DNA from: Nocardioides mangrovicus
GTDB lineage: Bacteria > Actinomycetota > Actinomycetes > Propionibacteriales > Nocardioidaceae
DNA: 64,000 bases
Direction: 5' to 3'
Assembly: GCF_003674065.1 (NCBI RefSeq)
Contig: NZ_RDBE01000010.1
Location: forward strand, 716,906 to 780,905
The notes under the pieces were generated by a model. That model saw nothing but the letters and a program-made list of their open reading frames with translations. It was not told the origin of the DNA and searched no databases. How positions within the stretch are numbered: the stretch's first letter is position 1; each line of letters opens with the position of its first letter. The position numbers and the translations under genes were made by a program. Positions 9,347 through 60,136 of the stretch are shown piece after piece.

Positions 9347-9352
9347 AGGGTA
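9347..9352 (-). promoter_or_regulatory. -10 element TACCCT of the recCBD unit
   Basis: On the minus strand TACCCT is followed by 7 nt and then the recC GTG, so transcription should begin at or next to the start codon. No convincing -35 hexamer is visible. Confidence 0.5.
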
Positions 9353-9398
9353 GATCGGGGGTCGGACAGGGGGTCGGGGTGTGCGCCGCCGGGCGGCG

Positions 9399-9428
9399 GG
9401 GGTTTTGCCGGGCACCCGGCAAAACCCC
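9399..9428. terminator. Perfect 14-bp inverted repeat between DUF2568 gene and recC
   Basis: The arms 9399-9412 and 9415-9428 are exact reverse complements around a 2-nt centre, each ending in TTTT or AAAA next to a G or C block. The repeat lies 41 bp downstream of the DUF2568 stop and about 60 bp before recC. It most likely terminates the upstream unit. A binding site for a dimeric regulator of recC is the alternative, since the arm is long and the loop is only 2 nt. Confidence 0.6.
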
Positions 9429-9469
9429 GGGAATTTCGCTCCAGAAACGCGCAACGAGACGAGTTTCAG

Positions 9470-9832
9470 TCATACGACGCCCGATTCACCCGGTTCGCGC
9501 ATCGCCAGCTCCCGCACCCCCGGCAGCTGGGCCAGCCCGTTGACCACCACCGAGAACGTCAGCAACGCCAGCGCCGACCCCGGGTGTCCCGCCGCCCAGA
9601 GACCCAAGGAGGCCATGGCGAAGACCAGCACCTTCACCACCGGCCGCACCAGCGGACCGCCGTACTGCGCCTTCGGCGAGGCGAACAGGAACCAGACCAG
9701 CACCACCGCGATCGCCGCGAGCACGCCCAGCCACCACCCGGCGGCGTGGGCGCCCCACACGTAGCTCGCGGCCATGGCCAGCAGCTCGTCGAGGAACACC
9801 AGCGCGAGCACGGTCCAGCCGAACGCCCTCAC
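9470..9832 (-). CDS. DUF2568 (YrdB-like) small integral membrane protein
   Basis: 120 residues with about four hydrophobic segments and the family's FASPKAQ-type turn between helices two and three, followed by a LGLWAAGH segment. I recognise it as the DUF2568 family, function unknown. The GTG at 9832 overlaps the stop of the flavin dehydrogenase as GTGA, so the two are translationally coupled. The protein probably sits wholly in the cytoplasmic membrane. A 14-bp inverted repeat follows it. Confidence 0.75.
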   Translation of the reverse strand: MRAFGWTVLALVFLDELLAMAASYVWGAHAAGWWLGVLAAIAVVLVWFLFASPKAQYGGPLVRPVVKVLVFAMASLGLWAAGHPGSALALLTFSVVVNGLAQLPGVRELAMREPGESGVV

Positions 9833-11493
9833 CGCAGCGCTTCGGCCATCGCCCTGCCCGCCGTGCGTCCCGAGAACAGGCAGCCGCCCAGGAAGGTGCC
9901 CTCCAGTGCGTTGTAGCCGTGCATGCCGCCACCGCCGAACCCGGCCACCTCGCCGGCGGCGTAGACGCCGGGCAGCGGCTCGCCGGAGGCCTGCAGCACC
10001 CGGCCCGACAGGTCGGTGTGCAGGCCGCCGAGGGTCTTGCGGGTGAGGATGTTGAGCCGGACCGCGATGAGCGGGCCCGCCTTCGGATCGAGGATCTTGT
10101 GCGGGGAGGCCACCCGCACCAGTCGGTCGCCGCGGAACTTGCGGTGCTGGCGCAGGTAGGTGACCTGGGTGTCCTTCGAGACGGGGTTGTCCATCTCCCG
10201 GTCGCGCTGCTCGATGATCGTGCGCAGCCGGTCGAGGTCGATCAGGTCCGAGCCGGCGACGGCGTTCATCCCCGAGACCAGCTCGGGCAGCGAGTCGGCC
10301 ACGACGAAGTCCTCGCCGTGCTCCATGAACGCCCGCACCGGCCCGGCCGGCCCGGGCCGTGCGCGCGAGAGGGTGAGCTTGATGTCCTTGCCGGTCAGGT
10401 CGGGGTTCTGCTCGGAGCCGGATAGCGCGAACTCCTTCTCGATGATCTTCTCGGTCAGCACGAACCAGGAGTACTCGTAGCCGGTGCGCAGGATCTCGCG
10501 CAGCGTGCCGAGGGTGTCGAAGCCGGGCAGGTACGGCGCGGGGAACCGCTCGCCGGTGGCCGAGAGCCACAGCGACGAGGGCCCGGGGAGGATGCGGATG
10601 CCGTGGTTGGCCCAGATCGGGTCCCAGTTGCGCAGCCCCTCGGTGTAGTGCCACATCCGGTCGGGGTTGATGACCTGCCCGCCGGCGTCCTGCGTGACCT
10701 GCAGGAAGCGGCCGTCGACGTGCGCCGGCACGCCGGCCACCATCGACGTCGGCGCGGGCCCGAGCCGGTCGGTGGGCCAGTTACGGCGCACCAGGTCGTG
10801 GTCGCCGCCGATGCCGCCTGAGGTGACCAGCACCGCCTGGGCGGCGTAGTCGAAGTCCTCGACGACGTCGCGGTTGGTGGCGCTGCCGCGCTCGGCGGAG
10901 TCGGGTGCGAGCACGGCCCCGCGTACGCCGGTCACGACGCCGTCGGTGGTGACGAGCTCGTCGGCCCGATGGCGGAACTTGAACGTCACCAGGCCCTTGG
11001 CCACGGCCTCGCGCACCCGCCGCTCGAAGGGCTCGACCACGCCCGGCCCGGTGCCCCAGGTGAGGTGGAACCGGGGCACGGAGTTGCCGTGGCCGCCCGC
11101 GCGTCCGTCGCCGCGCTCGGCCCAGCCGACCACGGGAAAGATCCGGTGGCCCATCGACCGCAGCCAGGAGCGCTTCTCACCGGCCGCGAACTCCACGTAC
11201 GCCTCGGCCCACTGCCGCGGCCAGTGGTCCTCGGGCCGGTCGAACTGCGCGCTGCCCAGCCAGTCCTGCCAGGCCAGCTCGTGGGAGTCCTTGATCCCGA
11301 GCCGGCGCTGCTCGGGGGTGTCGACCAGGAACAGTCCGCCCAGGCTCCAGAACGCCTGCCCACCCAGGCTCTGCTCGCCCTCCTGGTCCAGCAGGAGCAC
11401 CTTCCGGCCGGCGTCGGCCAGCTCGGCGGTGGCGACCAGCCCGGCCAGGCCGGCGCCGACCACGATGACATCGGCCTGTCCGTGGAACGTCAT
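9829..11493 (-). CDS. FAD-binding dehydrogenase (KstD/fumarate reductase superfamily)
   Basis: 554 residues. The N-terminal dinucleotide fold VIVVGAGLAGLVA binds the FAD adenosine and is followed by LLLDQEGE. A C-terminal GEVAGFGGGGMHG segment is typical of the second FAD-contact region. The closest family I recognise is the FAD-binding dehydrogenase group related to 3-ketosteroid delta-1-dehydrogenase; the natural substrate is unknown. The protein should be cytosolic. It is the first gene of a two-gene unit with the DUF2568 protein. A weak GAACAT hexamer lies 6 nt before the ATG. Confidence 0.85.
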   Translation of the reverse strand: MTFHGQADVIVVGAGLAGLVATAELADAGRKVLLLDQEGEQSLGGQAFWSLGGLFLVDTPEQRRLGIKDSHELAWQDWLGSAQFDRPEDHWPRQWAEAYVEFAAGEKRSWLRSMGHRIFPVVGWAERGDGRAGGHGNSVPRFHLTWGTGPGVVEPFERRVREAVAKGLVTFKFRHRADELVTTDGVVTGVRGAVLAPDSAERGSATNRDVVEDFDYAAQAVLVTSGGIGGDHDLVRRNWPTDRLGPAPTSMVAGVPAHVDGRFLQVTQDAGGQVINPDRMWHYTEGLRNWDPIWANHGIRILPGPSSLWLSATGERFPAPYLPGFDTLGTLREILRTGYEYSWFVLTEKIIEKEFALSGSEQNPDLTGKDIKLTLSRARPGPAGPVRAFMEHGEDFVVADSLPELVSGMNAVAGSDLIDLDRLRTIIEQRDREMDNPVSKDTQVTYLRQHRKFRGDRLVRVASPHKILDPKAGPLIAVRLNILTRKTLGGLHTDLSGRVLQASGEPLPGVYAAGEVAGFGGGGMHGYNALEGTFLGGCLFSGRTAGRAMAEALR

Positions 11494-11512
11494 TCCTGCA
11501 TGTTCTCAGGTC

Positions 11513-11518
11513 TACCTT
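11513..11518 (+). promoter_or_regulatory. -10 element TACCTT of the NCS1 permease gene
   Basis: TACCTT is separated by 7 nt from the ATG at 11526, the leaderless spacing seen repeatedly in this window. It lies in the 32-bp divergent gap with the flavin dehydrogenase gene. Confidence 0.5.
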
Positions 11519-11525
11519 TCTCGCT

Positions 11526-13459: not shown

Positions 13460-13463
13460 CCCC

Positions 13464-13617: not shown

Positions 13618-13710
13618 CGGAGGCGGACGGGAATCGAACCCGCCAGGCCGAGATGCTCGGCCTCACCGGTGTTGAAGACCGGGGGGACCACCAGGTACCC
13701 GTACGCCTCC
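13618..13710 (-). tRNA. selC: tRNA-Sec (anticodon TCA)
   Basis: A 93-nt cloverleaf read on the minus strand. The acceptor GGAGGCG pairs with CGCCTCC. The anticodon stem CCGGT/ACCGG holds the loop CTTCAAC, giving anticodon TCA. A long variable arm has an 8-bp stem AGGCCGAG/CTCGGCCT with a 3-nt loop, and the T loop is TTCGATT. A TCA anticodon with an extended variable arm identifies the selenocysteine tRNA that reads UGA. CCA is not encoded exactly (the genome has CCG). No selA, selB, selD or obvious selenoprotein gene lies in the window. Confidence 0.95.
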
Positions 13711-14509: not shown

Positions 14510-15130
14510 CTAACGGTAGGTGAGCAGGTCGGCCGGCAGGTGGGCGTGGTCGTTGAAGGTCAACAAGTTGGTGCCGCGTCGCCCGGTGACGACCGTGGTC
14601 ACCCCGGTGTTGACCACCACCCGCGCCAGCCGCCGGTACGTCGGCAGGCCGGCGTCGAGCAGTCCTGCGCACACCCAGCTGATCGGCCCGCCCGAGGTGA
14701 CGGCGACGACCAGCCCGTCGACCTCGAGCGCGGCGGCCAGGGCGGCCTCGACCCGGGCGGCGAAACCGGCGAACGACTCGCGGTACTCGGCGTCGAAGTC
14801 CCCGCTCATCCAGCGCTGCGTGGCCACCTCGAACCAGTCCTGGTAGTCGGGCGTCTCGGGCTGGCGGGAGAGCACGTCGACGTGGTCGATCTCGTCCCAG
14901 CCCGCCGCCAGCGAGGGCGTCAGCGACCAGCCGGCGGCGTCCGTGAGCTCCTCGGCCGTGCGGAGCTGGCGCTGCATCGCCCCGTGGACCACCGCCGCCG
15001 GCCTCTCCACGCGCTCGGCCAGCCACCGGCCCAGCACCCGGGCCTGCTCTTCGCCGGTGGGTGAGAGCACGTCGTAGTCCTCGGCCCCGAAGGAGGCCTG
15101 GCCGTGCCGGACCAGCAGCAGCCGGCCCAT
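14510..15130 (-). CDS. Histidine phosphatase family protein (phosphoglycerate mutase-like)
   Basis: 206 residues. The N-terminal LLLVRHGQAS motif carries the phospho-accepting His, and the partner region appears as VVAVTSGGPI, where a Ser-Gly replaces the more usual His-Gly. That substitution suggests an altered or weakened phosphatase. The ATG at 15130 overlaps the kinase-like gene stop as ATGA. The gene follows an SDR and an ACAD10-like phosphotransferase, and all three may act on one acyl or hydroxy-acid compound. Confidence 0.85.
   Translation of the reverse strand: MGRLLLVRHGQASFGAEDYDVLSPTGEEQARVLGRWLAERVERPAAVVHGAMQRQLRTAEELTDAAGWSLTPSLAAGWDEIDHVDVLSRQPETPDYQDWFEVATQRWMSGDFDAEYRESFAGFAARVEAALAAALEVDGLVVAVTSGGPISWVCAGLLDAGLPTYRRLARVVVNTGVTTVVTGRRGTNLLTFNDHAHLPADLLTYR
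14513..14518 (-). promoter_or_regulatory. -10 element TACCGT before the SDR gene
   Basis: TACCGT on the minus strand lies 6 nt before the GTG at 14506 and overlaps the last codons of the histidine phosphatase gene. The spacing matches a leaderless start. Confidence 0.4.
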
Positions 15131-16940: not shown

Positions 16941-16946
16941 ACCCTA
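16941..16946 (-). promoter_or_regulatory. -10 element TAGGGT of the SDR-kinase-phosphatase unit
   Basis: TAGGGT on the minus strand, then 6 nt, then the ATG at 16934. Leaderless spacing; no clear -35. Confidence 0.5.
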
Positions 16947-24365: not shown

Positions 24366-25490
24366 TCACCGCTGCACGGCCACCCCGGCCTCGATGAGGG
24401 CGTCGGCGTCGTCGATGCCCCAGGCCAGGAGAGCGGCGCGGGTGTCGGCTCCCGGCGCCGAGGGACCGGACCCGAGCTCGGCGGACGTGCGGGAGAACCT
24501 CGGCGCCGGCGCGGGCTGCACGACGCCGTCGCGCTCGACGTAGACCTCGCGGGCGACGTTGTGCGGGTGCCGGGCCGCCTCGGAGAGCGGCACGATGCCG
24601 GCCACGCAGGCGTCGGTGCCCTCGAGGTCGGCCACCCACTCGGCCTGGGTGCGCTCCTTGATCCGCGCGGTGATCAGCGAGCGCAGCTCGCCGGCGCGCT
24701 CGGGGTCGGCGCGGTCGGGGGCGTCCTCGAGCCCGAGGCGCTGCAGGAACTCGACGTAGAACTTGCCCTCCAGCGGCGCCACCGAGAGGTGCTTGCCGTC
24801 GGCGGTCTCGTAGACGTCGTAGTAGGGGACGCCGCCGTTGAGCAGTCCCTGGGCTCGCTCCTCGGGCTGGCCCATGTCCAGGAAGTTCGCGTTCATCGCC
24901 GACACGTGCGCGGCGCCGTCGACGATGGCGGCGTCGACCACCTGGCCGCGACCCGACGTGCGTGCCTCCAGGAGCGCCGCGAGCACGCCGATCACCAGGT
25001 ACGTCGAGCCGCCGCCGAAGTCGCCGGCCAGGTTCGACGGGAAGTGCGGTCGGTCGGGGTCCTGGCCGAGCCCGTGCAGCACGCCGGCCACCGAGATGTA
25101 GTTCATGTCGTGACCGGCGCTGTGGGCCAGGGGTCCGTGCTGACCCCACCCGGTCATCCGGCCGTAGACCAGCGCGGGGTTGCGCGCCCAGCAGTCCTCG
25201 GGACCGAGCCCGAGCCGCTCGGTGGTGCCCGGCCGCATCCCCTCGATCAGCACGTCGGCCCGCTCCACCAGCCGCAGCACCGTCGCGACCGCCTCCGGAC
25301 GCTTGAGATCGAGCGCGACGCTGGGCCGGCCGCGGTTGAGGACGTCGTAGGACCCCAGCTCCAGGTCACCGCCGCCCGGCCGGTCGATCCGGACGACGTC
25401 GGCGCCCAGGTCGGCCAGGATCATGCAGGCATGCGGCCCGGGGCCGATCCCGGCCAGCTCGACGACGCGTACTCCAGCCAGTGGTCCCAC
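24366..25490 (-). CDS. CaiB/BaiF family CoA enzyme, alpha-methylacyl-CoA racemase type
   Basis: 374 residues. The N-terminus [18 protein letters not shown] and the following [15 protein letters not shown] are typical of alpha-methylacyl-CoA racemases, as is [23 protein letters not shown], which carries the His used in racemisation. These enzymes invert 2-methylacyl-CoA so that branched or sterol side chains can enter beta-oxidation. I chose the GTG at 25490 over the ATG at 25502 because the family begins with this sequence and CATGAT lies 7 nt before it. Confidence 0.9.
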
Positions 25491-28458: not shown

Positions 28459-28486
28459 ATGCTAGGGCTCGGATCGACATTAGAAT
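28459..28486. promoter_or_regulatory. Divergent -10 elements: binding protein (-) and alpha/beta hydrolase (+)
   Basis: TAGCAT on the minus strand (28459-28464) is 7 nt before the ATG at 28451. TAGAAT on the plus strand (28481-28486) is 7 nt before the ATG at 28494. The 42-bp gap leaves no room for leaders on either side. Confidence 0.55.
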
Positions 28487-35387: not shown

Positions 35388-35410
35388 AGCCTACGCCCGT
35401 CTGGGAGAAT
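35388..35410. promoter_or_regulatory. Divergent -10 elements: lipoprotein unit (-) and PAP2-DAGK (+)
   Basis: TAGGCT on the minus strand (35388-35393) is 6 nt before the ATG at 35381. On the plus strand GAGAAT (35405-35410) is 8 nt before the GTG at 35419, a weaker match. Confidence 0.5.
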
Positions 35411-37018: not shown

Positions 37019-37729
37019 CTACTCGGACTCCTCGTCGACGACCTCGACCCCGGTGACGCCGTCGACCGCCCCCAGCGTCGAGACGGCGCCGGAGAGGTCG
37101 CGACCGGTCAGCGTGAGCATCACGCCGACCGTGTCGGCACCGCCGAGGGTCGGGGGCTCGGAGGCCAGGGCGGTCAGCGTCCAGCCCCGGTGGCTGCACT
37201 CGGCCAGCAGCCGGCGCAGCACTCCGCGGGAGTCCTGATAGGTCACGTGCAGGTGCAGCGAGCGGCGCAGCCGGCCGGGCAGCCGTGCCACCAGCGGCCC
37301 GAAGACCAGCACGATCACGAAGTGCAGGACGGTGACCACCACTGCCAGCAGCACCAGTCCGGCGCCGGCGGCCATGCCGATCGCCGCGACCTCCCACACC
37401 GCGGCCGCGGTCGTGAGCCCGCGCACGGCGCCCTGGCGGGTGATGATCAGCCCGGCGCCCAGGAAGCCGACGCCGGAGACGATCTGGGCGGCGACGCGGC
37501 TGGGGTCGAGCACGACGTGGTCGGACAAGACGTCGCCGAAGCCGTACTTGCTGACCAGCAGGATCAGCGCCGACGACGTGCCGACGATCGTCTGGGTCCG
37601 CAGCCCGGCGCTCTTGCCGCGCACCTCGCGCTCGAGGCCCACCAGGGCCGAGAGGCCGAAGGCCACCACCAGCTCGACCGCCTGGATGACGCCCTGTCCG
37701 GGGCCGCTGAGCAGGTCGAGCAGGGACAT
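37019..37729 (-). CDS. MgtC/SapB family membrane protein
   Basis: 236 residues. Four or five N-terminal helices include the family signature GLEREVRGKSAGLRT and SGVGFLGAGLI. The C-terminal part (from about residue 155) is a cytosolic ACT-like domain, as in MgtC. MgtC proteins help growth at low magnesium and modulate the F-type ATPase; the role here is inferred. TAGGCT lies 7 nt before the ATG. It is divergent from the C45 acyltransferase gene. Confidence 0.88.
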   Translation of the reverse strand: MSLLDLLSGPGQGVIQAVELVVAFGLSALVGLEREVRGKSAGLRTQTIVGTSSALILLVSKYGFGDVLSDHVVLDPSRVAAQIVSGVGFLGAGLIITRQGAVRGLTTAAAVWEVAAIGMAAGAGLVLLAVVVTVLHFVIVLVFGPLVARLPGRLRRSLHLHVTYQDSRGVLRRLLAECSHRGWTLTALASEPPTLGGADTVGVMLTLTGRDLSGAVSTLGAVDGVTGVEVVDEESE

Positions 37730-37736
37730 CGCCGCG

Positions 37737-37746
37737 AGCCTACGCT
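37737..37746. promoter_or_regulatory. Interlocked divergent -10 elements: MgtC (-) and C45 acyltransferase (+)
   Basis: Within the ten bases AGCCTACGCT, the minus strand reads TAGGCT (7 nt before the ATG at 37729) and the plus strand reads TACGCT (7 nt before the GTG at 37754). The hexamers share the central TA, so only one polymerase can melt the site at a time. Confidence 0.6.
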
Positions 37747-37753
37747 CGGGGTC

Positions 37754-38800
37754 GTGGTCCGCTCCTTCGCCTCCTCGCCGCTGCCGGCGTACGAGCGCGG
37801 GGTGGAGCTGGGCCGTGCGCACGCGGCCGACGTGGCCCGGACGACGCGTCGCTACGCCGACCTCTTCGCCCGCCGCGGCGAGCCCGGGTTCGACGCGCAC
37901 GCCTGGGCCGCGCGGTTCCGCGAGGTCGTCGGCGACACCGAGCCCGACGCGCTGGCCGAGATCCGCGGCATCGCCGCCGGTGCCGGGCTCGACGAGCTGG
38001 ACGTGATGGCCGTCGACGCGCGCACCGAGATCCTGGCGAAGGCCGACCCGTACGGGCAGAGGGAGTGCTCGGCCGTGCTCGTCGCGCCGCCCGAGGGTCC
38101 GGCGTTCGGCGTGCAGACCTGGGACTGGTACGCGGAGATGGCCGACGGCTGGTTCCGCTGGCGCATCCCCCGCCCCGACGGCTCATGGATCGAGACGGTC
38201 ACCGAGTACGGGCTGCTCGGCAAGATCGGCGTCAGCAGCCGAGGCGTCGGGGTGCTGCTGACGATCCTGCACCACGAGGCCGACGCCGGCGACGACGTCG
38301 GCTACCCGGTGCACCTGCTGGCGCGGCGGATCCTCGAGCGCTGCGCCTCGGCGGACGAGGCGGTCGAGCTGTGCTGCTCGACGCCGGTGGCGGCGTCGAC
38401 CTCGCTGACCGTGATGGACCCTGCCGGGGGCGCGACGGTGGAGCTGTTCCCCGGCGGACCCGGGGTGCTGCGGCCCAGCGAGGGACTGCTGGTGCGCACC
38501 AACCACTTCGTGACGACGGCCGGCGCACCGGGTTGCCTGGTGGGCGAGGACTACCCGACCACCTTCATCCGCCGCGACCACCTCGACACCACCCTGCGCG
38601 CCCGCCCACCCCGCGCGCCGGCGGACGTCGTGAGCGCCATGACCCACCACCACCCCGACGGCGGGGTCTGCCGGCACGGGAGCGAGGCCGGGGAGACCGC
38701 CACGCTGGCCACCGTCAGCATCACCACCGAGCCGCCCGGGCTCGACGTGCTCGCCGGCGGGCCGTGCCAGGGCGTCGTGCAGACCTACCCCCGCGCGTGA
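37754..38800 (+). CDS. C45 family autoproteolytic acyltransferase/hydrolase
   Basis: 348 residues, Ntn-hydrolase fold related to acyl-CoA:6-aminopenicillanic acid acyltransferase. A propeptide of about 100 residues precedes RECSAVLV, whose Cys should become the N-terminal nucleophile after self-cleavage. Downstream landmarks are VQTWDWYAEMADGW and LVRTNHF, with the Asn expected near the oxyanion site. Actual substrate unknown, probably an N-acyl amide. GTG start chosen for its TACGCT spacing. Confidence 0.85.
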   Translation: MVRSFASSPLPAYERGVELGRAHAADVARTTRRYADLFARRGEPGFDAHAWAARFREVVGDTEPDALAEIRGIAAGAGLDELDVMAVDARTEILAKADPYGQRECSAVLVAPPEGPAFGVQTWDWYAEMADGWFRWRIPRPDGSWIETVTEYGLLGKIGVSSRGVGVLLTILHHEADAGDDVGYPVHLLARRILERCASADEAVELCCSTPVAASTSLTVMDPAGGATVELFPGGPGVLRPSEGLLVRTNHFVTTAGAPGCLVGEDYPTTFIRRDHLDTTLRARPPRAPADVVSAMTHHHPDGGVCRHGSEAGETATLATVSITTEPPGLDVLAGGPCQGVVQTYPRA

Positions 38801-39198: not shown

Positions 39199-39204
39199 AC
39201 CCTA
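39199..39204 (-). promoter_or_regulatory. -10 element TAGGGT of the DUF4446 gene
   Basis: TAGGGT on the minus strand with 6 nt to the GTG at 39192; leaderless spacing in the 34-bp gap shared with pheA. For pheA itself only a weak GACGAT 6 nt before the GTG can be seen. Confidence 0.5.
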
Positions 39205-40057: not shown

Positions 40058-40722
40058 CCGAGCACCTCGACGACTTCGCCCGCGTCGACCTCGACCGCGA
40101 GCGCCGCACCGGCGACCCCGAGGTCGTCTACGGCGCCGGGAAGACCCCTGCACAGGTCGTGGCCATCCTGCGCGCGCTGCACGAGCGGCACCCCGACCGC
40201 GCGGTGCTCGCCACCCGGCTCGGCGAGGACGCCCGACAGGCCGTCGCCGAGCAGCTGCCCGAGGCCGACCTCGACCCGGTGGCGCGCACGGCCGTGCTCG
40301 GGCCGCTGCCCGAGCCGAGCGGCAGTGTGCTGGTCGTCGGCGCCGGCACCTCCGATGCCCCGGTGGTGCGCGAGGCGCTGGTGACCGCGCGCGTCCACGG
40401 CGCCCGGGCCGGCACCGTGCTCGACGTCGGGGTCGCCGGCCTGCACCGGCTGCTCGCGGTGCGCGAGGAGCTCGACGCCGCGGACTGCCTGGTGGTGGTG
40501 GCCGGCATGGAGGGGGCGCTGCCCAGCGTGGTGGCGGGGCTGGTCGGTGTCCCGCTGGTCGCGGTGCCGACGTCGGTGGGCTACGGCGCGAGCTTCGAGG
40601 GGCTGGCCGCGCTGCTGGCGATGCTGAACTCCTGCGCCCCCGGCGTCGTGGTGGTGAACATCGACAACGGCTACGGCGCGGCGGTGCACGCCGCCCGGGT
40701 CGCTCGAGCGGCTCACCGGTGA
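40054..40722 (+). CDS. larB: LarB, nickel-pincer nucleotide cofactor synthase
   Basis: 222 residues. LarB carboxylates and hydrolyses nicotinic acid adenine dinucleotide to pyridinium-3,5-biscarboxylic acid mononucleotide, the first step to the nickel-pincer cofactor. Recognised by the N-terminal DLDRERRTGDPEVVYGAGKTP and the AIR-carboxylase-like core VVGAGTSDAPVV, VVAGMEGALPSVV, and VPTSVGYGASFEG. Translation is coupled to pheA and larC through 4-bp overlaps. Confidence 0.94.
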   Translation: MTEHLDDFARVDLDRERRTGDPEVVYGAGKTPAQVVAILRALHERHPDRAVLATRLGEDARQAVAEQLPEADLDPVARTAVLGPLPEPSGSVLVVGAGTSDAPVVREALVTARVHGARAGTVLDVGVAGLHRLLAVREELDAADCLVVVAGMEGALPSVVAGLVGVPLVAVPTSVGYGASFEGLAALLAMLNSCAPGVVVVNIDNGYGAAVHAARVARAAHR

Positions 40723-41846
40723 TCGGCTGGGTCGACGCCTCGATGGGCGCCAGCGGCGACATGCTGCTGGGCGCGCTGGTGGGCGCCGGGGTGCCGCTCC
40801 CCGTGCTGCAGGACGCCGTCGACGCCGTCGCCGCCGAGCCGATCACGCTGCGTGAGGAGCGCGTCACTCGCCGCGGGCTCGCCGCCACGCGGGTGCACGT
40901 CGACGTCGGCGACTCGACGACTCGGCGCACCTGGCGCGAGATCCGGGAGCTCCCGCTGGGCCGGCGGGCCTTCGCGACTTTCGAGCGGCTGGCCGAGGCC
41001 GAGGCCGCCGTGCACGCCACGACGCCCGAGGAGGTCCACTTCCACGAGGTCGGGGCGCTCGACGCGATCGCCGACGTGGTCGGCGTGTGCGCGGGCCTGG
41101 ACCACCTCGGGCTCGAGGCGCTGGTCTGCTCGACCGTCTCCGTCGGGGGCGGCTTCGTCGACGCCGCCCACGGCCGGTTGCCTGTGCCCGCCCCCGCGGT
41201 GGTGGAGCTGCTGCGGGGCGTCCCGACCTCCGGCGGCCCGCTCGAGCTGGAGCTGTGCACGCCCACCGGGGCGGCGCTGCTGAGCGCCAACGTCACCGGC
41301 TGGGGCGCCCAGCCGCCGCTGGAGGTCCGGGCCGTCGGCACCGGGGCGGGCGGCCGCGATCCCGAGAGCCACGCCAACGTCCTGCGGCTGCTGGTGGGCG
41401 AGCAGAGCGGCGCGGTGCTGCTGGAGACCAACGTCGACGACCTCGACCCGCGGGTGTGGCCGGCGGCCATCGAGGCCCTGCTGGCGGCCGGTGCCAGCGA
41501 CGCGTGGCTGACCCCGATCGTGATGAAGAAGGGCCGGCCGGCCCACACGCTCAGCGTGCTGGTCGCCCCCGGCCGCGCGGAGGCGGTGCGCCGGGTCGTC
41601 TTCGAGCAGACCACGAGCATCGGGCTGCGCGAGAGCACCGTCGCCAAGCACGCGCTGCAGCGGCAGATGGTGGCGGTCGAGGTCGACGGCCGGTCGATCG
41701 CGGTCAAGGTCGCCCGCGACCCGGCCGGCGTGCTCAACGTGCAGCCCGAGTACGAGGACGTCGCCGCGGCTGCCCGCGCCCTCGGCCGGCCGGTCAAGGA
41801 CGTCTTGCAGGAGGCGACGGCGCGGGCCCGCACCCTGGCTCTCTAG
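40719..41846 (+). CDS. larC: LarC, nickel insertion enzyme for the nickel-pincer cofactor
   Basis: 375 residues, a single intact polypeptide; the Lactobacillus larC needs a programmed frameshift, which this gene does not. LarC inserts nickel into the pincer nucleotide using CTP. Landmarks are WVDASMGASGDMLLGAL at the N-terminus, EEVHFHEVGALDAIADVVG, LETNVDDLDP and TPIVMKKGRPAHTLSVL. GTG start at 40719 overlaps larB. The third pathway gene, larE, and the larA racemase are not in the window. Confidence 0.95.
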   Translation: MIGWVDASMGASGDMLLGALVGAGVPLPVLQDAVDAVAAEPITLREERVTRRGLAATRVHVDVGDSTTRRTWREIRELPLGRRAFATFERLAEAEAAVHATTPEEVHFHEVGALDAIADVVGVCAGLDHLGLEALVCSTVSVGGGFVDAAHGRLPVPAPAVVELLRGVPTSGGPLELELCTPTGAALLSANVTGWGAQPPLEVRAVGTGAGGRDPESHANVLRLLVGEQSGAVLLETNVDDLDPRVWPAAIEALLAAGASDAWLTPIVMKKGRPAHTLSVLVAPGRAEAVRRVVFEQTTSIGLRESTVAKHALQRQMVAVEVDGRSIAVKVARDPAGVLNVQPEYEDVAAAARALGRPVKDVLQEATARARTLAL

Positions 41847-41849
41847 GCT
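41844..41849 (+). promoter_or_regulatory. -10 element TAGGCT before the GDT1-type gene
   Basis: TAGGCT begins with the larC stop codon TAG and lies 6 nt before the GTG at 41856. It would give the transporter its own leaderless transcript in addition to read-through from pheA. Confidence 0.45.
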
Positions 41850-41855: not shown

Positions 41856-42467
41856 GTGGACCTCGCTGTCATCGGGATCAGCTTCGCCGCCATCTTCCTG
41901 GTCGAGCTGCCCGACAAGACGTTCGTGGCCGCGCTGGTGCTCTCGACGCGCTACCGGGGGCTGATGGTCTGGATCGGCGTCGGCCTCGCCTTCTTGGTGC
42001 AGACCATCTTGGCGGTGACGGTGGGGCGCGTGGTGGTGCGGTTCCTGCCCGAGCAGGTCGTCGAGGCAGTGGCGCTGCTGATCTTCCTGGCCGGCGCGGT
42101 GCTGCTCTTTCGAGCCGCCCCCGGCGCCGACGAGGCCGAGCAGGAGGCCGAGCGGGAGTACGAGGCGCGCGGCGACGAGGCCAAGCGCGGCCTGGCCGCC
42201 ATCGGCGCCTCGTTCCTGGTGCTCTTCGCCGCCGAGTGGGGCGACCTCTCCCAGCTGCTGACCATCAGCCTGGTCGGCCGCTACGGCCACACGCTGTCGG
42301 TGTTCGTCGGGGCCTGGGGCGCGCTGCTGGTCGTCTCGGGGCTCGCCGTGCTGGTGGGCCGGTTCCTGCTGCGCCACGTGCGCCTGTCGGTGGTGCACTA
42401 CATCGGGGCCGCGGTCTGCCTGGTGCTCGCGGTCATCACCGGCTACGAGCTGGCGACGTCCCTCTAG
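41856..42467 (+). CDS. TMEM165/GDT1 family (UPF0016) cation exporter
   Basis: 203 residues, six predicted helices in two inverted halves. The duplicated acidic motifs are [12 protein letters not shown] near residue 17 and [12 protein letters not shown] near residue 127, the metal path of this family. Bacterial members export manganese; others move calcium. Position just after larC raises the question of nickel or manganese balance, but that is speculative. A charged cytosolic loop (residues about 90-110) separates the halves. Confidence 0.9.
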
Positions 42468-42470
42468 AGT
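42465..42470 (+). promoter_or_regulatory. -10 element TAGAGT before arcA
   Basis: TAGAGT starts with the transporter stop codon and is 7 nt before the arcA ATG at 42478. Leaderless spacing. Confidence 0.5.
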
Positions 42471-49155: not shown

Positions 49156-49161
49156 ACGATA
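49156..49161 (-). promoter_or_regulatory. -10 element TATCGT of the AAA ATPase gene
   Basis: TATCGT on the minus strand with 6 nt to the GTG at 49149. Leaderless spacing, in the short gap after the MFS gene. Confidence 0.5.
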
Positions 49162-49192
49162 TCGAGGCGTCTAGCGTGAGCCCTAGATTTGG

Positions 49193-50575: not shown

Positions 50576-50606
50576 ACGCTAGGAGTTCAAGCGTGCTTGA
50601 GCTCAA
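50576..50606 (-). promoter_or_regulatory. MerR-type promoter (19-bp spacer) of the MFS gene
   Basis: On the minus strand -35 TTGAGC (50601-50606), exactly 19 nt, then -10 TAGCGT (50576-50581), 6 nt before the GTG at 50569. The long spacer contains the dyad TCAAGC-AC-GCTTGA (50587-50600), as in promoters that MerR/SoxR-family activators untwist. A second palindrome, CTTGAGCTCAAG (50596-50607), overlaps the -35. No merR-like gene is adjacent. Confidence 0.75.
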
Positions 50607-50617: not shown

Positions 50618-50623
50618 TAGGTT
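50618..50623 (+). promoter_or_regulatory. -10 element TAGGTT of the M3 peptidase gene
   Basis: TAGGTT lies 7 nt before the GTG at 50631. This favours that start over the in-frame TTG at 50622, which would overlap the -10. Confidence 0.5.
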
Positions 50624-53660: not shown

Positions 53661-53666
53661 TACCGT
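53661..53666 (+). promoter_or_regulatory. -10 element TACCGT of the Fpg/Nei gene
   Basis: TACCGT with 6 nt to the GTG at 53673; leaderless spacing in the 29-bp divergent gap. Confidence 0.5.
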
Positions 53667-55381: not shown

Positions 55382-55396
55382 ATCCTCTCGTACGGT
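55382..55396. promoter_or_regulatory. Divergent -10 elements: DUF3626 (-) and rhodanese (+)
   Basis: TACGGT on the plus strand (55391-55396) is 6 nt before the ATG at 55403. GAGGAT on the minus strand (55382-55387) is 6 nt before the GTG at 55375; its first base is off-consensus. Confidence 0.5.
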
Positions 55397-55738: not shown

Positions 55739-56396
55739 AGCGCGGCGCCGGCAGGCCCAGCGCGGCGTCGAGTCGGCGCAGGTAGTCCGCGCGCGGGATG
55801 CTCACCACGCCCAGCGAGGCCAGGTGCGGGGTCTCCCACTGCACGTCGAGCAGGCGGCCGGGCATCCCGTCGTCGAGCAGGTCGACCAGCGCCACCAGTG
55901 CCACCTTCGAGGCGTCGCGCCGCCGGTGGAACATCGACTCCCCCGCGAACAGCCCGTCGACGCTGACGCCGTAGAGCCCGCCGACCAGCTCGCCGTCGGA
56001 CCACGCCTCCACCGAGTGGGCGAAGCCGAGCCGGTGCAGCTCGGTGTAGGCGGCGGTGATCGAGTCGTCGATCCAGCCGCCCGAGCGGTCCGGGGAGGCG
56101 CAGCCGGCCATGACGGCCTCGAACGCCGAGTCGACGCGGATCTCGACGTGAGCGCACGCCTGCCTCAGCGATCGAGACATCCGCAGCCCGTCGAGCGGCA
56201 GGACGCCCCGCTCGACCGGGCACCACCAGCCCAGGCGACGGCCCTCGGGCATGGGGAACAACCCCAACCGGTACGCGGCGACGAGGGTCTCCGGCGCCAG
56301 GTCGGCACCGAGGGCCACCAGGTCGTCGAGCTCGGCGTCGAGTGCCGGGTCGCGCGGATCGGGGAAGTTCCACACCACACGTAGGCTTCCAGACAT
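55704..56396 (-). CDS. aat: Leucyl/phenylalanyl-tRNA-protein transferase
   Basis: 230 residues. It attaches Leu or Phe to proteins with N-terminal Arg or Lys for ClpAPS degradation. Motifs: AAYRLGLFPMPEG, WWCPVERGVLPLDGLRMSRSL, HSVEAWSDGELVGGLYGVSVDGLFAGESMF, and LLDVQWETPHLASLGV. The ATG at 56396 and the EcsC start on the other strand share one CATG. No leaderless -10 is visible for aat. Confidence 0.93.
   Translation of the reverse strand: MSGSLRVVWNFPDPRDPALDAELDDLVALGADLAPETLVAAYRLGLFPMPEGRRLGWWCPVERGVLPLDGLRMSRSLRQACAHVEIRVDSAFEAVMAGCASPDRSGGWIDDSITAAYTELHRLGFAHSVEAWSDGELVGGLYGVSVDGLFAGESMFHRRRDASKVALVALVDLLDDGMPGRLLDVQWETPHLASLGVVSIPRADYLRRLDAALGLPAPRFTPPADWPPSR
56382..56387 (+). promoter_or_regulatory. 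-10 element TAGGCT of the EcsC gene
   Basis: TAGGCT with 7 nt to the ATG at 56395. It lies inside the first codons of aat, which starts on the opposite strand. Confidence 0.5.
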
Positions 56397-57087
56397 GGGA
56401 CTGAGTAGTCGCGTCGGCAAGGCCATCGCCCCCCACGCGGGCGCCCTGGCGCCCGGCGCCACCTCGGCCTTCATCCATGACGTGCTCGACCGCGCCGTCA
56501 ACGGCGTCGGCCCTCTGCCCGGTGCGGCCCGCGCCGCCGACAAGCTGCTGGTCGAGCACCACGGCGACGTCGACGCGGCGGTCTCGGCGATCGTCGAGCG
56601 GCACGTGCGCTACGCCGGAGCGCAGGGGTTCTTGACCAACCTCGGCGGTCTGGTCACCCTCGCCGCCACCATTCCCGCGAACATCGCCGGGCTGGCGATC
56701 CTGCAGTGCCGGATGGTCGCCGCCGTGCTCCATCTGCGCGGCTACGACCTGCACGACCCGCGGGTGCACAACGCCATCTTGGCCACCGTGCTCGGCGAGG
56801 AGGCGGTGCTGAAGCTGATCAAGAAGCGCGAGCTGCCCGGCACCCCGATGGCGCTGGCCACCGCCCCGGCCCACGACCCCGACCTCGACAAGGTGGTCGC
56901 GGCGCAGGTCACCGCCGCCCTGGTGACCCGTGTGGCCGGCAAGAAGGTGGTCACCACCGTGGGCAAGCGGGTGCCGATCATGGGCGGCGTCATCGGCGCC
57001 GGCACCGACGCCTGGGCCACCTACCAGGTGGGACGCTACGTCCGGCGCGAGTTCTTGGTGCGGCCGAAGCGGCAAGCGTCGACCTGA
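56395..57087 (+). CDS. EcsC family protein
   Basis: 230 residues. A helical protein with a central hydrophobic segment (GGLVTLAATIPANIAGLAILQCRMVAAV) and the family AHVRYA/EEAVLKLI-type helices; EcsC is linked to ABC exporter EcsAB in Bacillus, but no EcsAB is here. Function unknown. It may be peripheral at the membrane. Confidence 0.8.
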   Translation: MGLSSRVGKAIAPHAGALAPGATSAFIHDVLDRAVNGVGPLPGAARAADKLLVEHHGDVDAAVSAIVERHVRYAGAQGFLTNLGGLVTLAATIPANIAGLAILQCRMVAAVLHLRGYDLHDPRVHNAILATVLGEEAVLKLIKKRELPGTPMALATAPAHDPDLDKVVAAQVTAALVTRVAGKKVVTTVGKRVPIMGGVIGAGTDAWATYQVGRYVRREFLVRPKRQAST

Positions 57088-57118
57088 CAGGTGACACGCC
57101 CACAGCCGTCGCGGCGGT

Positions 57119-57209
57119 GACGGTTCCCCACGGTACCCAGATGAACCGGCACTCCCCCACCGGGGCTCCTGTGGGTCAGTGACGGTTCGCCACGGCACCG
57201 TGGGGAACC
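57119..57209. repeat. Dispersed palindromic repeat, family A copy 2
   Basis: This 91-bp element aligns gap-free with 13522-13612. The right-hand palindrome GCCACGGCACCGTGGGGAAC is kept and the left palindrome has decayed. It lies between convergent EcsC and the sulfotransferase, ending just before the latter's stop codon. Confidence 0.8.
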
Positions 57210-57210
57210 G

Positions 57211-58398
57211 TCACCGGCCCCGGACCGCCCGGAAAGCCCCCAACCCGGCCCGGGCGAGGGGGTTCTCGTCGGCGAGCCGGACCAGCCGCTCCTTGGCCCG
57301 GTAGGTCCGCGTGCCGCGGAAGCGCTGCAGGGCGGCGTCGAGGTCGTCGATGATGGCGTGCAGCTCGATCTCGACGTCGCGCAGCCGGGCGGCCTCGCGG
57401 GTCATCGCCGCGAGGCCGCGGACGCCGGCGTCGGCCACCTCCGCCTCGTCCGGCTCGTCGGGGTCGACCCACGGCAGCGGATCGCGGGGCACGAGGTCGG
57501 CCACGTCGCCGACGACGTCGTAGCCGCCCTCGGCGATGCCGGCGGCCCAGTCGCGGGAGAGGTCGGAAGCCCAGGCGTGCACCTGCGGTGACACGCCGAG
57601 CCGGGCGGAGGTCTGCTGCTTCGAGAGCGTCTGGTGCACGAGGTACTCGCGCACGAACTGCCGGTAGCGCTCGTTGGGCACGACGTCGTTGAGCTGCTCG
57701 TTGAGCCGGCGCAGCAGCGCCGTCTCGGGCACGCCGAGCGAGGTGTTCTCGCGGTCGGTGCCCTCCGGCAGGGAGTCGGGGTCGAGACCGAAGACGCTGG
57801 CGAAGCGGTGCCACAACAGGTCGCGGGCCGCCCCCGGCTGCGGCACGGTCACGACGTGCGTCCGCGCGGGCGGCGCGGCCGCGGACCACCGGTGGAGGAT
57901 CTGCGGCACCTCCTGCACCCCCCAGAACCACGAGCTGATCAGCGTCTCGCGGGCCGGGTCGCGGATCTGCTCGAGGAACTCCTCGAAGCCGAGCACGCGC
58001 CGGTGCTTGACGTTCTCCTGCCACTCGGCCGGGATCTGGCGCACCAGGTCGCGCACGGAGACCACGACGTCGACCTCGGCATCGCCGAAGGAGGCCACCG
58101 CTCGCTCCACGTGGGCCGGCGAGGCGAACCCGAGGATCTCGTGGCTGATGATCGCGGTGCCCTCGGCCTCGCGGACCTGCGCCGCCAGCGCGTCCCAGGC
58201 GCCGACGGCCTGTCGCTCGAGACCGCCCCAGGTCAGCTGCATCAGGTCGAGCGCGGCCAGGAAGTGGGCGTCGTGCCGCTCCCCGGGGTAGACGACGCCC
58301 TGCGCGGCCAGCGAGGCGGGGTTGTTGAAGAGCCGGTCCTGCACGTACGACGTGCCCGTCTTGGGCACGCCCACGTGCACGATCACCCGGCGCGCCAT
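57211..58398 (-). CDS. Sulfotransferase-like protein (second paralogue)
   Basis: 395 residues. The N-terminal VHVGVPKTGTSYVQ carries the PxKTGT-type loop that binds the 5'-phosphosulfate of PAPS. HEILGFASP and VVVSVRDLVRQIPAEWQENVKHR follow, in which the Arg and Ser near the 3'-phosphate site appear conserved. About 60 C-terminal residues form a coiled region. It is the last gene of the three-gene cassette. Acceptor unknown; a surface glycan or lipid is plausible. Confidence 0.85.
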   Translation of the reverse strand: MARRVIVHVGVPKTGTSYVQDRLFNNPASLAAQGVVYPGERHDAHFLAALDLMQLTWGGLERQAVGAWDALAAQVREAEGTAIISHEILGFASPAHVERAVASFGDAEVDVVVSVRDLVRQIPAEWQENVKHRRVLGFEEFLEQIRDPARETLISSWFWGVQEVPQILHRWSAAAPPARTHVVTVPQPGAARDLLWHRFASVFGLDPDSLPEGTDRENTSLGVPETALLRRLNEQLNDVVPNERYRQFVREYLVHQTLSKQQTSARLGVSPQVHAWASDLSRDWAAGIAEGGYDVVGDVADLVPRDPLPWVDPDEPDEAEVADAGVRGLAAMTREAARLRDVEIELHAIIDDLDAALQRFRGTRTYRAKERLVRLADENPLARAGLGAFRAVRGR

Positions 58399-59042
58399 GA
58401 CAGCTCCTCGATCGCACGGTCCAACGTCGCTGCTACCGGCACGCCGCGCGGGCGGCCGGGATCGGTCGAGGGTACGCCGAGGCCCCGCTGCTCGGCCGCG
58501 GCGACCGCCCAGGCCAGGTACGGCTGCGGCACACCGAGCGGCTCGCCCGGCCGGTGCCGCACCACCCCGCCCGCTCGTGCGCGGACCGCGTCGGGTGCGG
58601 TGCCGAGCGCCTGGTTCACCCGCCGCAGCAGGTCGGTGCCCACCGGGTCGAGCCGCAAGGGGCCGACGACGTCGAGAGGCGGCAGCGAGCCGTGGGCGTG
58701 CATGGCCTCCCACACCCGGCGCCAGCGCACGCCCGCCCCGGCGCGGACCCGGCGCTCCCACACCGCGCCGACCAGCTCGTCGAGCGGTGCCCGCACGGCA
58801 GCCGGGGGTGGCTCGCGCCGCCACCGGCGTCGATGCCGGCGCGGTGGCTGCTCGGCGGGCAGCTGGCGCGCCAGGTAGGCCAGGGCCGAGACGCACGCGC
58901 GGAGCATCTCGCGGTCGTCGACCCGCTCGGGGTCGAGGCTGCCCCGACCGGCCAGCGGCAGCGAGCCGACCAGCTCGACGACGCCCAGCCCGGCGCCCGC
59001 GTGCTGCAGCCGGCGGGCGGCCTCCAGCTGCGCCTGCGTCAT
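58383..59042 (-). CDS. Protein of unknown function between two sulfotransferases
   Basis: 219 residues, Arg-rich in the middle (about residues 67-80). No P-loop. The stretch LDPVGTDLLRRVNQALG and LGVPQPYLAWAVAAAEQRGLGV resembles the C-terminal LLRRLN and LGVSPQVHAWASDLSRDWAAGI regions of the neighbouring sulfotransferases, so it may be a diverged or truncated paralogue lacking the cofactor loop. The start overlaps the upstream gene as ATGA and the end overlaps the next start by 16 bp. Confidence 0.6.
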   Translation of the reverse strand: MTQAQLEAARRLQHAGAGLGVVELVGSLPLAGRGSLDPERVDDREMLRACVSALAYLARQLPAEQPPRRHRRRWRREPPPAAVRAPLDELVGAVWERRVRAGAGVRWRRVWEAMHAHGSLPPLDVVGPLRLDPVGTDLLRRVNQALGTAPDAVRARAGGVVRHRPGEPLGVPQPYLAWAVAAAEQRGLGVPSTDPGRPRGVPVAATLDRAIEELSWRAG

Positions 59043-60124
59043 CTGTTGAGCCGACGCCACAGCCCGGCGTTGGCCTGCTCGCGGTACCGCGCCGCCTCGA
59101 GCTCGACGAGCGCGGCGAGTCCGTCGACGCCGGCGTCGATGATCCGCGCGGGGCGCGGGCGGTCTGGGTCGACCCAGGGCTCGCCGCCCTCCTCGGGCGT
59201 CGGTGGCCACCGCGTGGCCAGCTCCCCGAGGTCGCCGACGACGTCGATGCCCGAGCCCTCCACCCACTCGACCCACTCACCGGTGACCTGCTCGACGAAG
59301 TCGCGGCTCTCGGGCGGCAGGGTGGCGCGCAGCTGCTCGTCGCGGTGGCCCAGCGTGTCGCGGGCGAGCAGGTCGCGCACGATCTCGGCGTACACCGGCT
59401 GCGGGATGGCCCGGCCCCGCAGCGCGACGTTGAGCCGGCGCAGCAGCGAGACCTCGGCGATGCCCAGCGAGGGGTTGTCGTGGTCGCCGGGCTCCAACGC
59501 CAGCGACGGGTCGAGGCCCATCACCGAGAGGAAGCGGCGCAGCAGCAGCTCGGGGTCGTCTCGCGTGGGCGGCACGGTCACCAGGTGCACCTGCGAGGGC
59601 GTGAGGCCCGCGGACCACCGGCCCAGCACGTCGGGCACGCTCTGCACCCGCCAGAACCACTGCGTCGCGGCGCTGCGCGGCCCCTGGACCACCGAGTGCA
59701 GGAACTTCTTGAACCCCATCCGGCCCCGGTGCTTGACCTTCTCCTGCCACTCCGCGGGGATCTGCCGGCCCAGGTCGCGAGCGGTCAGCACGACGTGCAG
59801 CTCGGCGCCGGCCAGCGACTCCTGGGCCCGCCGGACGTTCTCCGCGGTGGCCGCGGCCAGCACCTCGTGGCTGATCAGCGCATCGCCGGGGGCGCGCACC
59901 GCGGCGGCCGCCAGCTTCTGCCACTCCCCGCGCGCGTGCCGCAGCCGGCCGCCCCACGGGTGGTCGATGAGGTCGATCGCCGCCTCGAAGTGGGTTCCGG
60001 CGGCGGTGTCGGGGTAGGTCAGCCCGTGGTCGGCCAGCAGCGTGCGGTTGCGCGCGAAGGTGCTCTGCAGATAGGTCGTGCCCGTCTTGGGCGCGCCGAC
60101 GTGGAGGAAGACGCGGCGGGCCAT
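59039..60124 (-). CDS. Sulfotransferase-like protein (first paralogue)
   Basis: 361 residues, clearly paralogous to 57211-58398: both start ARRV, have HVGxPKTGT, and share RQIPAEWQExVKHR and SLGI/VPExxLLRRLN. The P-loop APKTGTTYLQS is the better match to the canonical PAPS motif. Likely moves sulfate from PAPS to a carbohydrate or lipid. TAGGCT lies 6 nt before the ATG, inside the end of the HMG-CoA lyase gene. Confidence 0.86.
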   Translation of the reverse strand: MARRVFLHVGAPKTGTTYLQSTFARNRTLLADHGLTYPDTAAGTHFEAAIDLIDHPWGGRLRHARGEWQKLAAAAVRAPGDALISHEVLAAATAENVRRAQESLAGAELHVVLTARDLGRQIPAEWQEKVKHRGRMGFKKFLHSVVQGPRSAATQWFWRVQSVPDVLGRWSAGLTPSQVHLVTVPPTRDDPELLLRRFLSVMGLDPSLALEPGDHDNPSLGIAEVSLLRRLNVALRGRAIPQPVYAEIVRDLLARDTLGHRDEQLRATLPPESRDFVEQVTGEWVEWVEGSGIDVVGDLGELATRWPPTPEEGGEPWVDPDRPRPARIIDAGVDGLAALVELEAARYREQANAGLWRRLNR

Positions 60125-60130
60125 TCCAGG

Positions 60131-60136
60131 AGCCTA
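60131..60136 (-). promoter_or_regulatory. -10 element TAGGCT of the sulfotransferase cassette
   Basis: TAGGCT with 6 nt to the ATG at 60124. It overlaps the stop codon of the HMG-CoA lyase gene, so the cassette may be expressed separately from leucine degradation. Confidence 0.5.

What the first reader, a model, noticed from the sequence alone, without database searches (positions are those of the whole stretch)
9347..60136. Most transcription units start with a -10 hexamer 6-7 nt before the start codon (leaderless mRNA)
Nineteen unit-leading genes carry TANNNT exactly 6 or 7 nt before ATG/GTG (recC, NCS1 permease, two SDRs, binding protein, hydrolase, lipoprotein, MgtC, C45, DUF4446, GDT1, arcA, AAA ATPase, MFS, M3, Fpg, rhodanese, EcsC, sulfotransferase). 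At least five others have a weaker match at the same place. Genes inside overlapping units mostly lack it. TAGGCT, TAGGGT and TACCGT recur. This is stronger than the share usually reported for actinobacteria and also decides start codons (for example 50631 and 25490).
Basis: partly seen in the sequence, partly recalled or inferred. Interest (0 to 1): 0.7.

Follow-up and report, generated by a model that had tools for sequence, protein, structure and literature searches.

The report
Leaderless-gene promoters in a soil actinobacterium
Many genes in this actinobacterium carry their promoter box so close to the start codon that the messenger RNA should begin at the start codon itself; this is ordinary for the phylum, but in closely packed genes the preceding gene's stop codon often doubles as that promoter box.

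Summary
All 19 reported TANNNT boxes exist 6 or 7 nt before ATG/GTG, and a 20th precedes serS; the 64 kb window holds only 36 TANNNT on both strands. The genome is a 73% GC Nocardioidaceae. With starts called from coding signal alone in 1.24 Mb of it, TANNNT peaks sharply at spacers 6-8: 128 of 673 unit-leading genes against 7 of 274 overlapping genes. Orthologues keep the box: AAA ATPase 80/80, M3 19/19, arcA 23/24. The leaderless reading is well supported, but no 5' end was measured. "Most" holds at best for this window: 15/31 strict here against 155/642 elsewhere; net excess genome-wide is 18-22% strict, 25-30% with weak boxes. "Stronger than usual" is not supported: 4th or 5th of 18 same-class genomes, by control; measured shares I read span 17-33%. 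So it is a known phenomenon. One extra pattern I did not find in print: in tandem genes 9-11 nt apart, the upstream TAG/TAA stop itself begins the box (13/28 against 14/704 at other gaps; 10/25 without the window; five other genomes 7/20 against 11/637).

The parts
9347..9352 (-). -10 TACCCT, 7 nt before GTG 9339 (recC)
11513..11518 (+). -10 TACCTT, 7 nt before ATG 11526 (NCS1-type permease; coding-only start was 11565)
14513..14518 (-). -10 TACCGT, 6 nt before GTG 14506 (SDR); lies in the last two codons of the upstream gene, gap 3
16941..16946 (-). -10 TAGGGT, 6 nt before ATG 16934 (SDR)
28459..28464 (-). -10 TAGCAT, 7 nt before ATG 28451 (solute-binding protein family 3)
28481..28486 (+). 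-10 TAGAAT, 7 nt before ATG 28494 (alpha/beta hydrolase)
35388..35393 (-). -10 TAGGCT, 6 nt before ATG 35381 (lipoprotein by its visible lipobox; no Pfam hit; coding-only start was 35351)
37737..37742 (-). -10 TAGGCT, 7 nt before ATG 37729 (MgtC); shares its TA with the + strand box
39199..39204 (-). -10 TAGGGT, 6 nt before GTG 39192 (DUF4446; coding-only start was 39174)
41844..41849 (+). -10 TAGGCT, 6 nt before GTG 41856 (GDT1); TAG 41844-41846 is also the stop codon of the gene 40719-41846
42465..42470 (+). -10 TAGAGT, 7 nt before ATG 42478 (arginine deiminase); TAG 42465-42467 is also the stop codon of GDT1
49156..49161 (-). -10 TATCGT, 6 nt before GTG 49149 (AAA ATPase); 80 of 80 orthologues keep TANNNT at spacer 6-8
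49170..49187 (-). Conserved imperfect palindrome TCTAGGG-CTCA-CGCTAGA just upstream of the AAA ATPase -10; possible operator
50576..50581 (-). -10 TAGCGT, 6 nt before GTG 50569 (MFS)
50618..50623 (+). -10 TAGGTT, 7 nt before GTG 50631 (peptidase M3); 19 of 19 orthologues have a box at their own start
53661..53666 (+). -10 TACCGT, 6 nt before GTG 53673 (Fpg family)
55391..55396 (+). -10 TACGGT, 6 nt before ATG 55403 (rhodanese)
56382..56387 (+). -10 TAGGCT, 7 nt before ATG 56395 (EcsC)

Best explanation
These hexamers are -10 elements of the housekeeping sigma factor, placed so that RNA polymerase starts at the first base of the ATG or GTG. The mRNA then has no 5' UTR, and ribosomes start directly on a 5'-terminal AUG/GUG without a Shine-Dalgarno sequence. 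Shown here: the position, the codon specificity, the near absence from overlapping genes, the orthologue conservation for the genes that could be tested, and a box that follows the start codon when the start moves. Inferred from work on other actinobacteria: the sigma factor, the transcription start itself and the mode of translation. Roughly 20-30% of unit-leading genes use this in this genome, an ordinary share for the class. Where a gene follows another by 9-11 nt, the upstream TAG/TAA stop codon often supplies the TA of the box.
For: Spacer spike in 1.24 Mb, free of annotation: 128 and 100 ATG/GTG at spacers 6 and 7 against a mean of 22.8 at spacers 12-30; hexamers with other A/T arrangements give no comparable spike at both spacers (AT...A reaches 36 at spacer 6 against 23.8, but 16 at spacer 7). 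Coding-only starts: divergent 89/370, same strand >60 nt 22/209, overlapping 7/274. ATG 21/21 and GTG 28/19 at spacers 6/7 against means of 2.5 and 5.7; TTG 0/1 against 2.0. C at -1 in 82/128 boxed against 265/545 unboxed leading genes; Cortes 2013 reports C at -1, purine at +1 and T at +2 (PMC3898074, passages). Five-base SD core in 3/168 boxed against 229/934 unboxed genes (partly forced by geometry). Orthologues with the box, with the mean at control spacers in brackets: AAA 80/80 (7.8), M3 19/19 (0.2), arcA 23/24 (0.3), Fpg 32/35 (3.5), EcsC 19/26 (1.7), all. In the 19 M3 orthologues the start lies 12-18 codons further upstream and the box is there too. GDT1 orthologues whose start overlaps or abuts the upstream stop lack the box in 8 of 9 rows (two of the eight, L024 and L183, are the same genome).
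Against: No 5'-end data. GDT1 (12/26), rhodanese (9/26) and sulfotransferase (0/2) orthologues often lack the box. Of the 20 boxed genes, 19 were put to the orthologue test; ten of those (recC, NCS1, both SDRs, binding protein, hydrolase, serS, lipoprotein, MgtC, DUF4446) had no usable orthologue in the held loci, and the gene at 37754 was not put to it. No -35 motif was seen, so the sigma factor is not identified. TTG starts are too rare (7 of 1118) for the TTG test to weigh much. Spacer 8, used in 22/80 AAA orthologues, could mean a 1-2 nt leader.
Confidence: 0.93

Rival explanations
1. The boxes are real promoters but the transcripts carry very short leaders of 1-5 nt rather than none, or these promoters are secondary to leadered ones further upstream.
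For: Published -10 to start distances vary: 4-9 nt in S. lividans (PMC8079986, passages). Spacer 8 occurs in 20 of 171 strict sites here and in 22 of 80 AAA orthologues. TANNNT before the 673 unit-leading genes also shows a broad low rise at spacers of about 30-54, up to 7 per spacer, as leadered promoters would give.
Against: The sharp spike is at 6 and 7 (65 and 50, then 13 at 8 and 3 at 9) and confined to ATG/GTG; C is favoured at -1, which fits initiation on the R of RTG.
Confidence: 0.12
2. TANNNT near starts is a translation-related or compositional feature (AT-rich start region), not a promoter.
For: One-mismatch classes such as TTNNNT and AANNNT show small excesses at the same place.
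Against: Other A/T hexamers show no comparable spike, genes that overlap an upstream gene lack it (7/274), and a compositional effect would not peak at exact spacers 6-8.
Confidence: 0.03
3. The pattern is an artefact of choosing starts that have a box in front.
Against: Starts called from coding signal alone give the same spike, and an annotation-free count of TANNNT-to-RTG spacers gives it too.
Confidence: 0.02

Closest known systems
Leaderless genes of Actinobacteria with a TANNNT signal about 12 bp before the start (Zheng et al. 2011, PMC3160421; passages read)
   Same: Same hexamer, same distance, same phylum. Average 19.2% of genes in 86 of 89 actinobacterial genomes, range 2.3-29.8%.
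   Different: Fusion of stop codon and box was not found there ('stop codon' occurs 0 times in the main text).
Leaderless transcriptome of Mycobacterium tuberculosis and M. smegmatis (PMC3898074, PMC4633059, PMC6448022; passages)
   Same: TANNNT box, RTG at the 5' end; 26% of genes with a primary start in M. tuberculosis, 24% of transcripts in M. smegmatis. In M. tuberculosis no conserved -35 and C at -1.
   Different: Those are measured 5' ends; here only sequence. TANNNT is far rarer here: 819 in 1.24 Mb on both strands, against about 16,400 in the M. tuberculosis genome.
Leaderless mRNAs of Streptomyces lividans (17%) and Corynebacterium glutamicum (33%) (PMC8079986, PMC3890552; passages)
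   Same: TAnnnT box, mostly 5-7 nt from the start site in S. lividans (3-11 nt in C. glutamicum); ATG and GTG starts.
   Different: Both have a weak -35; none detected here. GTG is at least as common as ATG among boxed genes here (92 to 79), but 32% and about 21% there.
Stop codon overlapping the next gene's Shine-Dalgarno sequence (Palleja et al. 2009, PMC2784483; passages)
   Same: A stop codon is recruited into the initiation signal of the following gene, shifting stop-codon use and spacing.
   Different: There the signal is the SD sequence at gaps of 5-8 nt; here it is a -10 box at gaps of 9-11 nt with TAG/TAA.
Bidirectional bacterial promoters by symmetry (search listing and abstract starts only)
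   Same: Two mirror-image -10 boxes share bases and face opposite genes (MgtC and the gene at 37754).
   Different: Here both genes would be leaderless, 24 nt apart; no transcripts were tested.

Membership tests
Actinobacterial leaderless genes with housekeeping -10 box | TANNNT hexamer 6-8 nt before the start, above control spacers | tested here: met
   128/673 unit-leading genes against 7.2 expected from control spacers
Actinobacterial leaderless genes with housekeeping -10 box | Restricted to ATG/GTG start codons | tested here: met
   ATG and GTG enriched at spacers 6-7, CTG not, TTG 0/1 against 2.0; TTG is too rare to weigh much
Actinobacterial leaderless genes with housekeeping -10 box | No Shine-Dalgarno sequence | tested here: met
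   3/168 against 229/934; the box occupies part of the SD zone, so part of this is geometry
Actinobacterial leaderless genes with housekeeping -10 box | Rare in genes coupled to an overlapping upstream gene | tested here: met
   7/274 overlapping genes
Actinobacterial leaderless genes with housekeeping -10 box | Transcription start on the first base of the start codon | not testable with these tools
   needs 5'-end mapping
Actinobacterial leaderless genes with housekeeping -10 box | Translation from a 5'-terminal AUG/GUG | not testable with these tools
   needs reporters or ribosome profiling; shown for mycobacteria in PMC4633059 (passages)
Housekeeping sigma promoter with -35 element (S. lividans type) | -35 hexamer about 17 nt upstream of the -10 | tested here: not met
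   no position from -40 to -5 before the box above the reporting threshold in 171 aligned sites; ungapped alignment, so a -35 with variable spacing could be missed
Bidirectional promoter (37737-37746) | Mirror-image -10 boxes sharing bases | tested here: met
   shared TA; 3 of 13 divergent pairs with two boxes, of 185 divergent pairs examined
Bidirectional promoter (37737-37746) | Transcripts in both directions | not testable with these tools
   needs 5'-end mapping

The most novel reading that the evidence does not exclude
In GC-rich actinobacteria, where TA is scarce and TANNNT is depleted in coding sequence, the obligatory TA of TAG/TAA stop codons has been recruited repeatedly as the -10 box of the next gene. 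This creates independent leaderless transcription units packed 9-11 nt apart ('stop-codon promoters'). Gene pairs alternate in evolution between this state and stop/start overlap with translational coupling, as at the GDT1 junction (7 fused, 8 overlapping or abutting without a box, among the 17 of 27 loci in which the upstream homologue was seen; own genome included, one genome counted twice). If so, TAG against TGA at such junctions is set by promoter need rather than by translation.
Probability: 0.5. Interest if true: 0.5.

Novelty: new member of a known kind. Interest (0 to 1): 0.3.

Why it matters
For annotation: in such genomes the box sets start codons and splits runs of closely spaced genes that would otherwise be called operons. 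For biology: a stop codon that is also a promoter element gives a simple test (TAG to TGA keeps the stop and removes the box) of how independent promoters arise inside gene arrays, and would explain part of stop-codon choice in GC-rich actinobacteria. The leaderless finding itself adds one more genome to a well-described pattern.

Tried and rejected
Whole-window dinucleotide shuffles proved a weak control because they restore TANNNT that the real sequence lacks; spacing controls inside the real sequence were used as well. A -35 element was looked for and not seen. The claim that this genome is exceptional was tested by counting TANNNT-N6-ATG against TANNNT-N14-ATG in 197 genomes of the phylum and rejected. 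Only the 18 same-class rows were ranked, by hand arithmetic, and a few others read by eye; it covers ATG at spacer 6 only. With the tool's own control (pattern read backwards) the genome has 178 against 52 and ranks 4th of 18 instead of 5th. Coding-only gene calling was repeated in five other genomes. The AAA palindrome was sought elsewhere in the genome as a possible regulon; the pattern TCTANGN7CTAGA matched only at its own place. Weak one-mismatch boxes were not assigned gene by gene because their control rate is high. The TANNNT deficit in coding sequence is partly shared by other A/T hexamers and by TAT and TAN6T, and in G082 the sense strand shows no specificity (TANNNT 0.33, TANNNA 0.31), so only about a threefold specific deficit in the own genome is claimed.

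Papers: searches. I found no description of a stop codon serving as the -10 box of the next leaderless gene in those listings or in the passages read. Most subscription papers are not held, and no paper was read whole.


Full report
What the window is. The window lies in a 4.11 Mb genome (G000:C19:716906-780905); the window has 73% GC and the 1.24 Mb sample 72%. The AAA ATPase at 47956-49149 matches Marmoricola and Nocardioides proteins best (up to 85% identity; mostly 78-85% for these genera), so the organism is taken to be a member of the Nocardioidaceae.

The observation. There are only 36 TANNNT hexamers on both strands of the window. Dinucleotide shuffles give 3.56 and 3.57 for the two spacers against 11 and 9 found, reached by 1 of 100 shuffles each. 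In the real sequence, spacers 10-30 hold about one ATG/GTG each.

Genome-wide test. A gene caller of my own, trained on coding signal only and blind to upstream sequence, called 1163 genes; 1118 had a start and 100 nt of upstream sequence. Of these, 16 were at stretch edges and left out of the class counts. TANNNT at spacers 6-8 precedes 89/370 divergent genes, 22/209 same-strand genes more than 60 nt behind a neighbour, 17/94 at 31-60 nt, 33/155 at 1-30 nt and 7/274 overlapping genes. The expected number from control spacers for the 673 unit-leading genes is 7.2 against 128 found. Allowing other in-frame starts within 75 nt gives 170 against 20.9. Adding one-mismatch classes, with negative classes counted as such, gives a net excess of 25-30%. 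The window is richer than the rest (12/31 against 116/642, p = 0.008; 15/31 against 155/642 with other starts, p = 0.005). It was picked by a reader who noticed it, so that difference is not independent evidence. Seventeen of the window's 20 boxes stand before the start that the blind caller chose.

Why leaderless. Only ATG and GTG are enriched at spacers 6 and 7. C stands at -1 in 82/128 boxed leading genes against 265/545 unboxed. A five-base Shine-Dalgarno core stands before 3/168 boxed genes against 229/934 unboxed, though the box itself occupies part of that zone. No -35 motif appears. Per spacer, the 673 leading genes have 65, 50 and 13 boxes at 6, 7 and 8 and 3 at 9; a broad low rise of up to 7 per spacer at about 30-54 looks like leadered promoters. 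These agree with published actinobacterial leaderless promoters: TANNNT about 12 bp before the start and 19.2% of genes on average (PMC3160421, passages); 26% of genes with a primary start in M. tuberculosis, with C at -1, purine at +1 and T at +2 (PMC3898074, passages); 24% in M. smegmatis (PMC6448022, passages); 17% in S. lividans (PMC8079986, passages); 33% in C. glutamicum (PMC3890552, passages). The denominators of these shares differ from mine. In mycobacteria ATG or GTG at the 5' end is necessary and sufficient for leaderless translation (PMC4633059, passages).

Conservation. All 80 AAA ATPase loci kept by the search (the best 80 of 575) keep TANNNT at spacer 6, 7 or 8 (58 at 6-7, the remaining 22 at 8). 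In held loci other than the own genome, the box is present in 19/19 M3, 23/24 arcA, 32/35 Fpg, 19/26 EcsC, 12/26 GDT1, 9/26 rhodanese, 1/1 MFS and 0/2 sulfotransferase orthologues; ten other boxed genes had no usable orthologue there and the gene at 37754 was not put to the test. Mean hits at control spacers were 0-3.5 per gene, 7.8 for AAA. In the M3 relatives the start lies 12-18 codons further upstream and the box is there too. In the window the M3 frame opens only at 50622, so the start must be 50622 (TTG) or a later one, and the box fits 50631. For 24366-25490 the CoA-transferase family III profile begins at residue 4 of the protein read from 25490, which favours that start over 25424.

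Is it unusually strong? Counting TANNNT-N6-ATG minus TANNNT-N14-ATG per Mb (my arithmetic), this genome has 38.0 and ranks 5th of the 18 same-class genomes (range 20-58); with the pattern read backwards as control it ranks 4th. Two genomes of other families in the phylum, read by eye, reach about 87-90. Coding-only calling in four other genomes gives 8.5-19% of leading genes with a strict box, and 45/226 in a same-genus genome, against 128/673 here. So the share is ordinary.

Stop codons as -10 boxes. At GDT1, arcA and the gene at 59039-60124, the TAG of the box is the stop codon of the preceding gene. In the own sample, tandem pairs with a gap of 9-11 nt have a stop that begins a TANNNT in 13/28 cases against 14/704 at other gaps (p = 2e-13; TAG stop 16/28 against 116/704). 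Without the window, whose three junctions prompted the test, it is 10/25 against 13/673 (p = 4e-10). Part of the contrast follows from leaderless geometry itself; the sharper statement is positional. Among 79 tandem genes with a box, the upstream stop coincides exactly with the box in 13, and no other offset exceeds 5. Five other genomes together give 7/20 against 11/637 (p = 2e-7), coincidence again being the commonest offset (7 of 65). Singly they are small: G215 3/9, G071 2/6, G133 1/2, G023 1/3 (not significant), and G082 had no pair at that gap. At the GDT1 junction, 27 loci including the own genome fall into 7 fused, 8 overlapping or abutting without a box, 1 overlapping with a box, 1 with box and stop elsewhere, 4 with a box and no upstream homologue seen, and 6 without a box and unknown neighbour; L024 and L183 are the same genome. 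At the arcA junction only 3 of 25 are fused, while 24 of 25 have a box. This suggests two alternative states at GDT1, translational coupling by overlap or an own promoter built on the stop codon. The nearest thing found in print is recruitment of stop codons into the Shine-Dalgarno sequence (PMC2784483, passages).

TANNNT is depleted in genes. In 1024 coding sequences TANNNT occurs 136 times in sense against about 600 after synonymous-codon shuffling, and 106 against about 510 in antisense (ratios 0.23 and 0.21). The other seven A/T patterns of the same shape give 0.56-0.92 on either strand. TAT (0.45, 0.36) and TAN6T (0.59, 0.57) are also low, so codon-boundary bias plays a part. Five other genomes also show low TANNNT (0.07-0.35), but there TANNNA is often low as well (down to 0.31), and on the sense strand of G082 TANNNT is no lower than TANNNA. 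Selection against spurious -10 motifs is a known idea (PMC1939733, passages). It fits a genome in which the -10 box nearly suffices as a promoter, and it makes stop codons one of the few places where TA is always at hand. That last step is inference.

Verdict. 'Most units' and 'stronger than usual' do not hold for the genome. The phenomenon is known; the stop-codon fusion is the part worth following.

Noticed in passing
window 49170-49187 (-): An imperfect palindrome (TCTAGGG-CTCA-CGCTAGA) lies just upstream of the AAA ATPase -10 and is visible by eye in most of the 80 orthologues, with variants in Actinomadura-type genomes and less clearly in Rhodococcus. The pattern TCTANGN7CTAGA matches once in the genome, so it may be an operator of that gene alone.
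   Followed up: partly
window 37727-37756: Divergent MgtC and the gene at 37754 have mirror-image -10 boxes sharing one TA, with 24 nt between the genes. Two further divergent pairs of this kind occur in the own sample (3 of 13 pairs with two boxes).
   Followed up: partly
own genome sample and five other genomes: TANNNT is depleted to about a fifth of the synonymous-shuffle expectation on both strands of coding sequence in the own genome, and is low in five others, where TANNNA is often low too.
   Followed up: partly
window 13619-13710 (-): A selenocysteine tRNA gene (Rfam RF01852, 79 bits).
   Followed up: no
L010 (G000:C19:360001-380000): A 20 kb stretch with low GC (0.648) in which only 6 genes with a start were called; possible foreign island.
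   Followed up: no
window 24366-25490 (-): The coding-only start 25424 is probably too short: read from GTG 25490 the protein matches CoA-transferase family III from its residue 4 on, with a weak box CATGAT.
   Followed up: partly
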